From assembly GCA_025964325.1 (NCBI GenBank), contig JAOPZA010000071.1, forward strand, positions 1-39,641: a stretch of 39,641 nucleotides of DNA, in the 5' to 3' direction. This DNA is from Conexibacter sp. (GTDB lineage Bacteria > Actinomycetota > Thermoleophilia > Solirubrobacterales > Solirubrobacteraceae). The notes under the pieces are model-generated. The model was not told where the DNA came from and did not search any database. It saw only the letters and a program-made list of their open reading frames with translations. A program made the translations under genes and the position numbers. Shown here in pieces: positions 5,074 to 8,662 of this stretch (the first letter of the stretch is position 1; each line of letters opens with the position of its first letter).

Positions 5074-6083
5074 GCGCGGTGGTCCATCCGATCGAGGCGC
5101 GCGGACTGGTCAAGCGCTACGACCACATCACAGCCGTCGACCATGTCGACCTGACGGTCGAGGCCGGCACCGTCTACGGCTACCTCGGCCCGAACGGCGC
5201 CGGCAAGACGACGTCGCTGCGGATGCTGCTGGGCCTGATCCGTCCGGACGAGGGCAGCGCGCGCCTCTTCGGCCGCGATCCGATCGAGGAGGGGGCGGCG
5301 GCGCTCGAGGGCGTCGCCGGCTTCGTCGAGGCGCCGCGCTTCTACCCCTACCTGTCGGCGCGGCGCAACCTCGAGCTGATGGCCACGCTCGACGGCGGCG
5401 ACGCCGGCGACCGGATCGACGACGCGCTCGCGACCGTCGACCTGACCGAGCGCGAGGACGACAAGGTCAAGGGCTACTCGCACGGGATGAGACAGCGCCT
5501 CGGGATCGCGGCGGCGCTGCTGCGCGACCCGCGGCTGCTGCTGCTCGACGAGCCGACGACCGGGCTCGACCCGGCCGGCATGCGCGATATGCGCCAGCTC
5601 GTCCGGCGGCTCGCGGCCGACGGGATCACGGTCATGCTCTCGTCTCACCTGATGACCGAGGTCGAGGAGCTGTGCGACCGGCTCGCGATCGTCCGCTCGG
5701 GGCGCGTGATCTACGAGGGCGGGCTGACGGAGCTGCTGCGCTCGACCGGTCAGCGCTACCGCCTGCGGACGACCGACGACCGCCGTGCCGCCGAGGTGCT
5801 CGCGCACCAGGGCGGCGTCGGCGAGGTCGAGCAGGGCGAGGACGGGCTGTCGTTCGCCGCCGACGAGGGGATCGTCGCCGAGCTGTCGATCGCGCTCGTC
5901 GAGTCGGGCGTCGGGCTGACCGCGCTGGTGCCCGCCGCGGCCTCGCTGGAGGACCTCTTCTTCGAGCTGACCGAAGATGCGGCGGAACCCTCGCCTAGCG
6001 GCTCGGGTTCCGTTGGGAGAACTCGCCCAGAGGCTCGTTCTTCCGGCGGTGCGGCAGCGCTTGGCGAGCAGGTTCGGTCATGA
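5070..6083 (+). CDS. ABC transporter ATP-binding protein
   Basis: 337 residues. Walker A GPNGAGKTTS (K46), signature YSHGMRQRLG, Walker B LLLLDEPTTGLD and a switch histidine in MLSSHLM are all intact. This is the layout of drug/lipid-export ATPases (DrrA/CcmA-like). A C-terminal regulatory part (about 220-305) ends at EDLFFELTE, where family members normally stop. A Pro/Ser/Gly-rich tail of about 30 residues follows and its DNA contains an inverted repeat (5983-6012). ATG overlaps the stop of the LolA-like gene and its own stop overlaps the permease start. It powers the permease encoded next. The substrate is unknown. Confidence 0.93.
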   Translation: MSAVVHPIEARGLVKRYDHITAVDHVDLTVEAGTVYGYLGPNGAGKTTSLRMLLGLIRPDEGSARLFGRDPIEEGAAALEGVAGFVEAPRFYPYLSARRNLELMATLDGGDAGDRIDDALATVDLTEREDDKVKGYSHGMRQRLGIAAALLRDPRLLLLDEPTTGLDPAGMRDMRQLVRRLAADGITVMLSSHLMTEVEELCDRLAIVRSGRVIYEGGLTELLRSTGQRYRLRTTDDRRAAEVLAHQGGVGEVEQGEDGLSFAADEGIVAELSIALVESGVGLTALVPAAASLEDLFFELTEDAAEPSPSGSGSVGRTRPEARSSGGAAALGEQVRS

Positions 6084-6952
6084 GCGCGACGGCTTCCGCG
6101 CCGCGGGCGACGGCTGCGCCGCGTGCGCACAGCCGGCGCCCGAGCATCGCCGGGATCTACGTCTGGGAGCTGCGCAAGCTGCGGGCGCAGAAGCGCACGT
6201 ACCTCGGGCTCGGCTCGGCGGTCGTGATCCCGGTCATCTTCGTCGTGTCGCTGATGCTGCAGAGCGGCGACGTGAACGACGTGCCGTTCGGTCGCTACGT
6301 GCGGCAGACCGGCCTCGCGATCCCACCCGTGCTGCTGCTGTTCAGCTCGATCTGGCTGCTGCCGCTGATCGTCTCGCTCGTCGCCGGCGACATCGTCGCG
6401 AACGAGGACGGCAACGGCACGCTGAAGACGATCCTGACGCGCTCGGTCGACCGTCAGCAGATCTGGCTCGCGAAGATGCTCGCGGCCTTCACCTACGCGG
6501 TGCTGGCGCTCGTGCTGTTCGCCGGCGTCGGCCTGCTGCTGGGCGGCCTGCGCTACGGCTTCCACCCGCTGACGTCGCTGTCGGGCACGAGAATCGGGGC
6601 CGGTCGCGCGCTCGCGCTGATGGGCGCGTCCCTGCTGGCCTACCTGATTCCGCTGTGCGCGCTCGCGGCGATCGCGCTGCTGCTCTCGACCGTGACGCGC
6701 AACTCGGCCGCTGCCGTCGTCGGCGCGCTGATGGCATCGCTGATCATGCAGCTGCTCGGCGTCATCTCGGGCCTCGGCTTCCTCAAGCCCTACCTGCTCT
6801 CGACGCAGTTCGACGCGTGGCAAGGGCTGTTGCGAGAGCCAGCCGACTGGGCGCCGATCGTGCGCTCGGCGTGGGTGTCGGCGTGCTACGGGATCCCCGC
6901 GCTGCTGATCGGGTTGACGAACTTCGTGCGACGCGACGTGACGGGCGGCTAG
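6080..6952 (+). CDS. ABC-2 type transporter permease
   Basis: 290 residues with about six membrane segments (roughly 41-60, 80-103, 130-155, 178-203, 208-232, 262-282) after a basic, Ala/Pro-rich N-terminus. The motif VAGDIVANEDGNGTLKTILTRSVDR between segments 2 and 3 is typical of NatB/ABC-2 permeases. It forms the membrane half of the exporter with the ATPase encoded just upstream (4-base overlap). It is the last gene of the two-component/LolA-like/ABC module. The nitrile hydratase operon begins 65 bases further on. Confidence 0.9.
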   Translation: MSATASAPRATAAPRAHSRRPSIAGIYVWELRKLRAQKRTYLGLGSAVVIPVIFVVSLMLQSGDVNDVPFGRYVRQTGLAIPPVLLLFSSIWLLPLIVSLVAGDIVANEDGNGTLKTILTRSVDRQQIWLAKMLAAFTYAVLALVLFAGVGLLLGGLRYGFHPLTSLSGTRIGAGRALALMGASLLAYLIPLCALAAIALLLSTVTRNSAAAVVGALMASLIMQLLGVISGLGFLKPYLLSTQFDAWQGLLREPADWAPIVRSAWVSACYGIPALLIGLTNFVRRDVTGG

Positions 6953-6968: not shown

Positions 6969-7010
6969 CCCTCCCCCGAGATTTGACTTCTGATCAAATG
7001 TCGGGGAGGG
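6969..7010 (+). promoter_or_regulatory. Long hairpin covering the nitrile hydratase ribosome-binding site
   Basis: The 5' arm (6969-6986, CCCTCCCCCGAGATTTGA) pairs with the 3' arm (6994-7010, TCAAATGTCGGGGAGGG) through 16 pairs with one G-G mismatch and one bulged C, around a seven-base loop. The 3' arm contains GGGGAGGG, the only Shine-Dalgarno-like sequence of the beta-subunit gene, seven bases before its ATG. The structure could mask that site in the mRNA or terminate the upstream transcript (no T-tract follows). As DNA, the central TTTGA-N7-TCAAA could be an operator. Which of these it is cannot be decided from sequence. Confidence 0.6.
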
Positions 7011-7017
7011 TTCCGTC

Positions 7018-7710
7018 ATGGTCGTTCGCAACGGGCCGCATGACCTCGGCGGAGCGCCCGGCTTCGGCCCGATCGACCCGCGTCCCGACGCCGAGCTCTA
7101 TCCGGAGGGCTGGGAGGGGCGCTGCATCGGGGCGATCGTCGCGACGATGGCGGCGGGCGCCTACAACGTCGACGAGTGGCGCGCGCGGATGGAGGAGCTG
7201 CCGGCCGCCGCGCAGTTCGCAATGGGCTACTACCGCCGCTGGTTCTACACGCTCGAGCGCAACCTCGTGCTGCACGACGTGCTGCGCGAGGCGGAGATCG
7301 ACGCGCGCGCCGCGGCGCTCGGTGAGGGCGCGCCGCCACCGCCTCGGCGGCGCGACCCCGAGCTGCTCGCGGCGATCGAGCGCCTGCTGCGCGAGGGCGC
7401 CCCGCTCGCCCGCGAGCTCGCCGTGCCGCCGCGCTTCGCCGTCGGCGCGCGGGTCCGCACGCGGCGGATCCTGGTCGAGCGGCGCGGCGAGCAGCACACG
7501 CGGATGCCGGGCTACGTCCAGGACCGTCGCGGCGTGGTCGAGCGCCGTTACCCGGCGATGACGCTGCCCGATGCGAGCGTGCGCGGCGAGGACCGCGCCG
7601 AGTTCCTGTACGCGGTCAGCTTCGCCGCCAGCGACCTGTGGCCGGACGGCGCCGCCGACGTGCGCGTCTCGGCGGATCTGTTCGAGAGCTACCTGATCGC
7701 GGAGGCGTGA
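7018..7710 (+). CDS. nthB: Nitrile hydratase subunit beta
   Basis: 230 residues. This is the beta chain of nitrile hydratase, which with alpha hydrates nitriles to amides at a low-spin metal centre. The N-terminal signature is present (GPHDLGGAPGFGPI), followed by the helical domain (EGWEGRCIGAIVATMAAGAYNVDEWRARME, then YYRRWFYTLERNLVLHDVL). The C-terminal SH3-like barrel has MPGYVQDRRGVVER and ends LWPDG...VRVSADLFESYL, as in the family. Arginines in YYRRW and QDRRG are in the positions that contact the oxidised cysteines of alpha. Gene order beta-alpha-accessory is the one usual for cobalt-type enzymes. The Shine-Dalgarno sequence lies in the preceding hairpin. Confidence 0.93.
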   Translation: MVVRNGPHDLGGAPGFGPIDPRPDAELYPEGWEGRCIGAIVATMAAGAYNVDEWRARMEELPAAAQFAMGYYRRWFYTLERNLVLHDVLREAEIDARAAALGEGAPPPPRRRDPELLAAIERLLREGAPLARELAVPPRFAVGARVRTRRILVERRGEQHTRMPGYVQDRRGVVERRYPAMTLPDASVRGEDRAEFLYAVSFAASDLWPDGAADVRVSADLFESYLIAEA

Positions 7711-7712
7711 CG

Positions 7713-8303
7713 ATGCCGCTGGCCAACGACGAGACCGCGCTGCGGATGCGCGCGATCGAGTCGCTGCTGATCGAGAAGGGCCTGCTGACGGAGGAGGTCG
7801 TCGATCGCATCGCCTCGACGTACGAGCACGACATCGGGCCGCTGCGCGGCGCGCGCGTCGTGGCGCGCGCGTGGACGGACCCCACCTTCCGCGCCCGCCT
7901 GCTGGCGGACGGGACCGCGGCGATGGCCGAGCTCGGCGTCGGCGGCTTCGTCGCCGAGCACGTCGTCGTGGTCGCCAACACGCCGGAGGTCCACAACCTC
8001 GTCACCTGCACGCTCTGCTCCTGCTACCCGTGGGGCGTCCTCGGACTCCCGCCCTCCTGGTACAAGAGCCCCGAGTACCGCGCCCGCGCCGTCCGCGAGC
8101 CGCGCGCGGTGATCGCCGAGTTCGGCGTCGAGCTGCCGCCCGCGACGGCGATCCGCGTCTGGGACTCGAGCGCCGAGGTGCGCTATCTCGTCCTGCCGCA
8201 GCGACCGGACGGGACCGACGGGCTCGCCGAGGAGGAGCTGGCGGCGCTCGTCACGCGCGACTCGATGGTCGGCACGGGCCTGGCGGTGGCGCCGGGGCGA
8301 TGA
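7713..8303 (+). CDS. nthA: Nitrile hydratase subunit alpha, cobalt type
   Basis: 196 residues, close to the usual length of about 200. The claw-setting metal motif is CTLCSCYPW with C99, C102 and C104. Thr at the second position (CTLCSC rather than CSLCSC) is the established marker of the cobalt type. Flanking NTPEVHNLVT, LGLPPSWYKSPEYRARAVREPR and EFGVELP are family-conserved. The start is the ATG two bases after the beta stop codon, in agreement with the MPLANDETALR N-terminus. The following accessory gene overlaps by four bases. It works in the cytoplasm as an alpha-beta heterodimer. No amidase gene is in the window to consume the amide product. Confidence 0.95.
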   Translation: MPLANDETALRMRAIESLLIEKGLLTEEVVDRIASTYEHDIGPLRGARVVARAWTDPTFRARLLADGTAAMAELGVGGFVAEHVVVVANTPEVHNLVTCTLCSCYPWGVLGLPPSWYKSPEYRARAVREPRAVIAEFGVELPPATAIRVWDSSAEVRYLVLPQRPDGTDGLAEEELAALVTRDSMVGTGLAVAPGR

Positions 8304-8662
8304 GCGTCAGCGACCGGATCCGCGACGAGCCGTCACTGCCGCGCCGCAATGGCGAGCTGGCCTTCGACGCGCCCTGGCAGTCGCGGGCGTTCAGCGTCGC
8401 GGTGGCGCTGGCCGAGTCGGGCGTCTGGGAGTGGGACGCGTTCCGGACGCGCCTGATCGACGAGATCGGCGCCTGGACCGACGCCGGCGGGGATGCGCCC
8501 GACGCCGGCTGGGACTACTACGCCCATTGGCTCGCGGCGCTCGAGCGCGTCCTGCTCGAGACGCGCGTGCTGACGGCGGCCGAGCTCGACGCCGAGCTGC
8601 GGCGCCTCGCCCACGCGGCCGCGCACGAGCACGACGACGAGCACGGGCACAGCCACGCCTAG
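8300..8662 (+). CDS. Nitrile hydratase accessory (activator) protein with His-rich tail
   Basis: 120 residues. The sequence (LPRRNGELAFDAPWQSRAFSVAVALAESGVWEWDAFR, then WDYYAHWLAALERVLLE) matches the P14K/NhlE-type activators, which are homologous to the N-terminal half of the beta subunit and deliver cobalt and promote cysteine oxidation in alpha by subunit swapping. The start ATG overlaps the alpha stop (ATGA). The C-terminus ends in a metal-binding-looking run, HEHDDEHGHSHA, with five His in the last twelve residues plus acidic residues. This may bind cobalt (inference). Confidence 0.88.
   Translation: MSVSDRIRDEPSLPRRNGELAFDAPWQSRAFSVAVALAESGVWEWDAFRTRLIDEIGAWTDAGGDAPDAGWDYYAHWLAALERVLLETRVLTAAELDAELRRLAHAAAHEHDDEHGHSHA

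What the first reader, a model, noticed from the sequence alone, without database searches (positions are those of the whole stretch)
6969..7017. Hairpin that sequesters the nitrile hydratase Shine-Dalgarno sequence
A 16-pair imperfect inverted repeat ends seven bases before the beta-subunit ATG, and its 3' arm is the ribosome-binding site itself (GGGGAGGG). The 5' arm supplies the complementary CCCTCCCC. This would allow an on/off switch of the operon through RNA folding, a ligand, a protein, or transcription-translation coupling from the upstream ABC operon. The A/T-rich centre TTTGA-N7-TCAAA could alternatively be a repressor operator. Nitrile hydratase operons are usually described as protein-regulated, so an RNA switch would be new.
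Basis: partly seen in the sequence, partly recalled or inferred. Interest (0 to 1): 0.65.

Follow-up and report, generated by a model that had tools for sequence, protein, structure and literature searches.

The report
Nitrile hydratase promoter–operator, not RNA switch
The palindrome in front of a nitrile-hydratase operon is most likely a DNA switch: a regulator's binding site laid over the promoter, one of about nine such sites in this bacterium that seem to co-regulate genes for breaking down nitrogen compounds, and the mRNA probably starts after it, so the proposed RNA hairpin would not be on the normal message.

Summary
The palindrome at 6969-7010 is real and its 3' arm is Shine-Dalgarno (SD)-like; folded as RNA it gives the least accessible SD of 41 SD-bearing genes tested. 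Comparison, however, points to DNA. The A/T core is two overlapping inverted copies of TGATCAAATGTCAA. The genome holds six exact copies, one with 1 mismatch and three with 2 (two of these in the window); deeper hits are noise. The sites lie near catabolic genes: acetamidase/formamidase, Mo-hydroxylases, monooxygenase, importers. The congener's nitrile-hydratase leader keeps the core (14/14) but not the G/C arms. Read as TTGACATTTGATCA, 11 of 19 sites in six genomes have a -10-like hexamer 17-18 nt after TTGACA (P about 5e-11); five are followed by a start codon 6-8 nt later, including nitrile hydratase (TTGACT-N17-GAGGGT-N6-ATG). The mRNA is therefore probably leaderless and lacks the hairpin. 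An FCD-GntR regulator (contig C214) is the likely ligand: its clade occurs in 9 of 121 genomes, including all six with exact sites. The G/C arms probably belong to a 3'-end hairpin of the upstream ABC operon. An SD-masking lock against read-through remains possible; a ligand-sensing RNA switch is unsupported.

The parts
6983..6996 (-). Operator copy 1: TGATCAGAAGTCAA on the minus strand (TTGACTTCTGATCA on plus), 2 mismatches to TGATCAAATGTCAA; the copy in the same position and orientation as the congener's site
6991..7004 (+). Operator copy 2, inverted and overlapping copy 1 on TGATCA: TGATCAAATGTCGG, 2 mismatches; its 14-bp form TCTGATCAAATGTC (6989-7002) is identical in the congener's leader
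6983..6988 (+). Putative -35 element TTGACT, inside operator copy 1
   Evidence: spacing pattern shared across sites
7006..7011 (+). Putative -10 element GAGGGT, 17 nt after the -35; overlaps the SD-like sequence (compare TAGGGT at the same spacing in G002 and G017)
   Evidence: no consensus sigma-70 match by the generic scan
6969..6976 (+). 5' G/C arm CCCTCCCC, complementary to the SD-like sequence; not present in the congener's leader
7003..7010 (+). 3' G/C arm GGGGAGGG, SD-like
7018..7710 (+). Nitrile hydratase beta subunit (TIGR03888); predicted transcription start at or next to its ATG
   Evidence: start fixed by in-frame stop
7713..8303 (+). Nitrile hydratase alpha subunit (TIGR01323)
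8300..8662 (+). Nitrile hydratase accessory (activator) protein (TIGR03889)
6080..6952 (+). ABC permease gene whose stop codon lies 17 nt before the 5' arm; relatives often carry a U-less G/C hairpin after this gene

Best explanation
The palindrome is a promoter-operator. Two overlapping inverted copies of a 14-bp operator (TGATCAAATGTCAA) lie over the -35 region of a promoter, TTGACT-N17-GAGGGT, whose transcript is expected to start at or within a base or two of ATG 7018 (leaderless mRNA). An FCD-subfamily GntR regulator, most likely the one at G000:C214:27728-28465, binds there, probably as a repressor released by a catabolic effector. It would coordinate nitrile hydratase with about eight other loci (amidase, Mo-hydroxylase, monooxygenase, importer genes). 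The outer G/C arms are most likely a 3'-end hairpin of the upstream ABC operon and are not in the nitrile-hydratase mRNA made from its own promoter. Shown by computation: the motif, its copy number, its intergenic placement, its conservation in the congener, the promoter spacing, and co-occurrence with the regulator clade. Inferred: which regulator binds, repression rather than activation, the effector, leaderless initiation, and the role of the arms.
For: Discrete motif set in the genome: 6 exact, 1 at 1 mismatch, 3 at 2, then noise (10 hits at 3 mismatches; control 8 in all); up to 1 mismatch this genome has 8 sites while most of 121 family genomes have 0-1. Sites lie between genes, near acetamidase/formamidase, CoxG/CoxL, monooxygenase, binding proteins, CMD, GntR. 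Core shared 14/14 with the congener's nitrile-hydratase leader while the rest differs; two further orthologous sites (coxG-ABC, CMD-SRPBCC) are footprinted in the same way. -10-like hexamer at 17-18 nt in 11 of 19 sites, background 4.3%, P 4.6e-11; start codon 6-8 nt later in 5 of these. The congener's nitrile hydratase also fits: TTGACA-N17-GAAGAC-N8-GTG. FCD-GntR genes adjoin sites in G103 (25 nt), G017 (21 nt), G063 and G002 (each 1.8 kb). The window genome's C214 GntR is 67% and 63% identical to the G017 and G002 ones, with the same MSxMPxREALR helix. All six genomes with exact sites are among the nine of 121 with the clade (hypergeometric 2e-8).
Against: The -10 hexamer GAGGGT is weak (2 of 6 to TATAAT) and the generic promoter scan finds nothing. 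A good SD 7 nt before the ATG would be wasted on a leaderless mRNA. The window copies are the weakest of the set (2 mismatches each). Genomes are related, so the co-occurrence P value is optimistic. No binding or expression data. Some sites (C42:24018, C141, C23:645) do not show the same promoter pattern.
Confidence: 0.7

Rival explanations
1. Read-through lock: RNA that runs in from the ABC operon folds the hairpin and masks the SD, so nitrile hydratase is translated only from RNA that starts at its own promoter. This works like the SD-masking hairpins reported for insertion-sequence transposase genes and for phage T4 long transcripts (from memory). It is compatible with the operator explanation.
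For: Lowest SD accessibility of 41 genes; arms in register beyond chance (8 in 100,000); only 65 bp separate the tandem genes.
Against: The arms are not conserved in the congener, whose SD is largely open (0.69) and whose upstream gene differs. Hairpins after the ABC permease also occur in relatives that lack nitrile hydratase there, so SD masking may be a side effect.
Confidence: 0.25
2. Ligand- or temperature-sensing RNA switch in the nitrile-hydratase leader.
For: Strong fold with a masked SD.
Against: No Rfam match; no conserved structure in the congener or Patulibacter leaders; no aptamer-like element in the 65-nt leader; the core is a dispersed DNA motif; the predicted start is downstream of the hairpin.
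Confidence: 0.05
3. The whole palindrome is nothing but a terminator-like 3'-end hairpin of the ABC operon, with no role for nitrile hydratase.
For: 5 of 18 permease orthologues carry stems of 8-13 bp within 55 nt of the stop, against 3.3% of control segments, P 2e-4.
Against: Does not explain the 14/14 core shared with the congener, where the ABC operon is elsewhere, nor the other sites of the motif. No U-tract.
Confidence: 0.1
4. The operator is real, but the regulator is another protein, for example the FCD-GntR at C23:1146-1853 or a TetR like the one upstream of the congener's operon.
For: The TetR gene lies 97 bp upstream of nitrile hydratase in G001; the C23 GntR is 0.5 kb from a site, an arrangement conserved in G001.
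Against: No TetR gene at the window locus. The C23 GntR has a different recognition helix and no close relative in most other site-bearing genomes, while the C214 clade does.
Confidence: 0.3

Closest known systems
FCD-subfamily GntR repressor operators, e.g. DhdR of Achromobacter denitrificans (PMC8651671, read)
   Same: Short dyad of 13 bp (GTTATCAGATAAC there; TGATCAAATGTCA here) over a -35 region; regulator of the GntR/FCD family linked to catabolic genes
   Different: Different operator sequence; here two overlapping inverted copies; a multi-locus regulon; binding not shown
Leaderless promoters of Actinobacteria (PMC3898074, PMC3160421)
   Same: A -10 hexamer centred about 10 bp before the start codon (here 9.5 bp); documented Streptomyces coelicolor cases such as devA have the same 6-nt gap
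   Different: -10 is GAGGGT rather than TANNNT; overlaps an SD-like sequence; transcription start not mapped
SD-masking hairpins that silence read-through RNA (insertion-sequence transposases, phage T4 genes; from memory)
   Same: SD in the 3' arm, own promoter within or after the hairpin, active upstream operon
   Different: Not conserved in the congener; no evidence for translation control
Protein-regulated nitrile-hydratase operons of Rhodococcus and relatives (from memory)
   Same: Protein-based control of transcription
   Different: Regulator genes sit in the operon there; here a distant FCD-GntR regulon seems to include the operon. No paper in the library joins nitrile hydratase, GntR and operator

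Membership tests
Transcription-factor operator (regulon motif) | Same motif at several intergenic sites, far above control | tested here: met
Transcription-factor operator (regulon motif) | Conserved in an orthologous leader while flanks diverge | tested here: met
   (one congener only)
Transcription-factor operator (regulon motif) | Bound by a named protein | not testable with these tools
   candidate FCD-GntR from adjacency and co-occurrence only
FCD-GntR regulon | GntR plus FCD domains in the candidate regulator | tested here: met
   (PF00392, PF07729)
FCD-GntR regulon | Regulator gene beside its own sites | tested here: met
   in G103, G017, G063, G002; in the window genome 5.8 kb from a site on C214
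Leaderless promoter | -10 element about 10 bp before the start codon | tested here: inconclusive
   position met, hexamer weak
Leaderless promoter | Mapped transcription start at the start codon | not testable with these tools
   no expression data
Riboswitch or RNA thermometer | Conserved structure with covariation in relatives | tested here: not met
   no equivalent arms in the congener or Patulibacter leaders; few sequences
Riboswitch or RNA thermometer | Match to a known RNA family | tested here: not met
Riboswitch or RNA thermometer | Hairpin lies within the mRNA leader | tested here: inconclusive
   predicted start is after it
Intrinsic terminator | G/C stem followed by a U-tract | tested here: not met
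   stem present, U-tract absent; U-less hairpins recur after the permease in relatives

The most novel reading that the evidence does not exclude
One 42-bp palindrome does three jobs: operator and leaderless promoter for nitrile hydratase in DNA, 3'-end hairpin of the upstream operon, and an SD lock that keeps read-through RNA untranslated, so ribosomes reach nitrile hydratase only on RNA started at its own promoter.
Probability: 0.2. Interest if true: 0.55.

Novelty: new member of a known kind. Interest (0 to 1): 0.38.

Why it matters
It turns a suspected RNA switch into a testable regulon: a motif, a candidate FCD-GntR regulator and about nine target loci that link nitrile hydratase with amidase, Mo-hydroxylases and importers in a little-studied actinobacterial group (the congener with the operon is a Solirubrobacterales MAG). 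It also warns that an SD inside a predicted hairpin need not be on the mRNA in lineages rich in leaderless genes, where a -10 such as GAGGGT or TAGGGT can imitate an SD.

Tried and rejected
Repeat or mobile element: the full palindrome is unique in the genome and the motif occurs singly with unlike flanks. Riboswitch: no Rfam match, no conserved structure. Strict intrinsic terminator: no U-tract. Motif as a mere -35 box: some sites (C42:24018, C23:645) face the gene the other way. OmpR-type response regulator in the window: nothing ties it to the motif. The FCD-GntR on C23 was first favoured, then set below the C214 GntR after comparing recognition helices and co-occurrence. Generic palindrome search TTTGAY-N-RTCAAA: one other hit (C115) that is not an operator match. 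Arm covariation across wider nitrile-hydratase leaders: too diverged to align. Papers: nothing joining nitrile hydratase, GntR and operator, nor GntR and TTGATCAAA. No metagenome scans were available, so no more leaders of the genus could be gathered.

Full report
Observation. The palindrome exists as described: CCCTCCCC at 6969-6976 pairs with GGGGAGGG at 7003-7010, and TTTGA/TCAAA at 6982-6986/6994-6998 form the core. The beta-subunit ATG at 7018 is the only possible start, because an in-frame TGA lies in the palindrome at 6991-6993. As RNA the region folds to -38.1 kcal/mol, z -2.6. Among 110 gene leaders of this genome its energy ranks only 11th, but its SD is the least accessible of 41 SD-bearing genes. 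The outer arms match in register in 8 of 100,000 random segments, although that threshold was chosen after the fact.

Genome and genes. The window is contig C10 of a 4.3-Mb assembly, 96.7% complete. The operon is nitrile hydratase beta, alpha and accessory protein, and an ABC transporter pair ends 65 bp upstream. The ABC permease is found in all seven genomes of the genus, nitrile hydratase in only two, so the two look like independent units.

The core is a dispersed DNA motif. The congener G001 (77% complete) has the operon behind a different gene (TetR), and its leader shares GACATTTGATCAGA 14/14 with the window but not the G/C arms. A scan for TGATCAAATGTCAA in the window's genome gives six exact sites, one with one mismatch and three with two. 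Two of these last three are the overlapping inverted copies in the window (6983-6996 minus, 6991-7004 plus). Below that, ten hits at three mismatches compare with eight control hits. Across 121 family genomes most have none or one such site at up to one mismatch; this genome has eight. Two inverted copies sharing TGATCA explain the palindromic core.

Neighbours of the sites. The sites lie beside an acetamidase/formamidase and an acyl-CoA-dehydrogenase-type monooxygenase (C42), an ABC importer ATPase and an alpha/beta-hydrolase-like gene (C42), CoxM/CoxS-like genes (C214), CoxG/CoxL genes and an ABC importer (C23), a CMD gene and an FCD-GntR (C23), and periplasmic binding proteins (C201, C141). 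Pfam was run on a subset; the other names are read from the sequences. Genes and starts come from a simple codon-usage caller and may be off in places; one long ORF call on C42 covers a site, but the ABC ATPase methionine lies downstream of the site. Amide hydrolysis next to nitrile hydration makes metabolic sense.

Promoter architecture. Read as TTGACATTTGATCA, 11 of 19 sites in six genomes have NANNNT at a spacer of 17 or 18 from TTGACA. Counts peak at 17 (seven) and 18 (four); background 4.3%, P 4.6e-11. Three more sites have a second TTGACA immediately after, with AATA(C/G)T at 17. In five of the eleven a start codon follows 6-8 nt after the -10: nitrile hydratase here (GAGGGT-N6-ATG), thiolase-like genes in G002 and G017 (TAGGGT), the GntR gene of G103 (TAGATT) and an FAD-oxidoreductase-like gene of G103 (GAGGCT). 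The congener's nitrile hydratase fits with its second TTGACA (TTGACA-N17-GAAGAC-N8-GTG). Leaderless genes are common in Actinobacteria (PMC3898074, PMC3160421). On this reading the transcript starts at the ATG and does not contain the hairpin, and GGGGAGGG is largely the -10 region. The weak hexamer, the absence of a consensus promoter and the good SD keep this step at moderate confidence.

Regulator. FCD-GntR genes lie beside sites in G103, G017, G063 and G002. The window's genome has a relative of the G017 and G002 proteins (67% and 63% identical) at C214:27728-28465, with the same MSxMPxREALR helix. The clade is found in nine of 121 genomes, and all six genomes with an exact site are among them (P 2e-8, not corrected for kinship). 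Another FCD-GntR, on C23, is near one site but has a different helix. The published FCD-GntR repressor DhdR has a 13-bp dyad over a -35 region (PMC8651671), the same layout. Whether the regulator represses, and what releases it, is inference.

The outer arms. In 5 of 18 permease orthologues a stem of 8-13 bp follows within 55 nt of the stop codon, against 3.3% of control segments (P 2e-4). These stems lack a U-tract, as here. The arms are therefore plausibly the 3'-end hairpin of the ABC operon. A further role in masking the SD of read-through RNA is possible but is not conserved in the congener, whose SD is mostly open.

Verdict. It is a new member of a known kind: an FCD-GntR-type promoter-operator in front of a probably leaderless nitrile-hydratase operon.

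Noticed in passing
window 8600-8662: The nitrile-hydratase accessory protein ends in a His/Asp/Glu-rich tail (HEHDDEHGHSHA), as expected of a metal-delivery part.
   Followed up: no
window 7998-8027: The alpha subunit carries the metal motif CTLCSC, the form associated (from memory) with cobalt-type nitrile hydratases.
   Followed up: no
L203 8162-8221 and L133 14423-14501: Tandem gaps in this genome carry perfect G/C hairpins of 12 and 10 bp without U-tails, so such hairpins may be a common gene-end or operon-internal device here.
   Followed up: partly
L080 452-1054: In the congener a TetR/MftR-like regulator gene lies 97 bp upstream of the nitrile-hydratase beta gene; it is absent from the window locus.
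   Followed up: partly
L128 4500-4800: In G017 the thiolase-like gene behind the operator seems broken or frame-shifted: its first 40 residues match the G002 gene, then the frame is lost and an SDR-like frame follows.
   Followed up: no
L135 12870-13817: In G002 a carbon-nitrogen hydrolase (nitrilase superfamily) gene lies between an operator site and the FCD-GntR gene, a second link of this motif with nitrile or amide metabolism.
   Followed up: partly
G000:C115:42929-42945 (L050): A perfect palindrome TTTGACCTTCGGTCAAA elsewhere in the genome, not a match to the operator described here.
   Followed up: no
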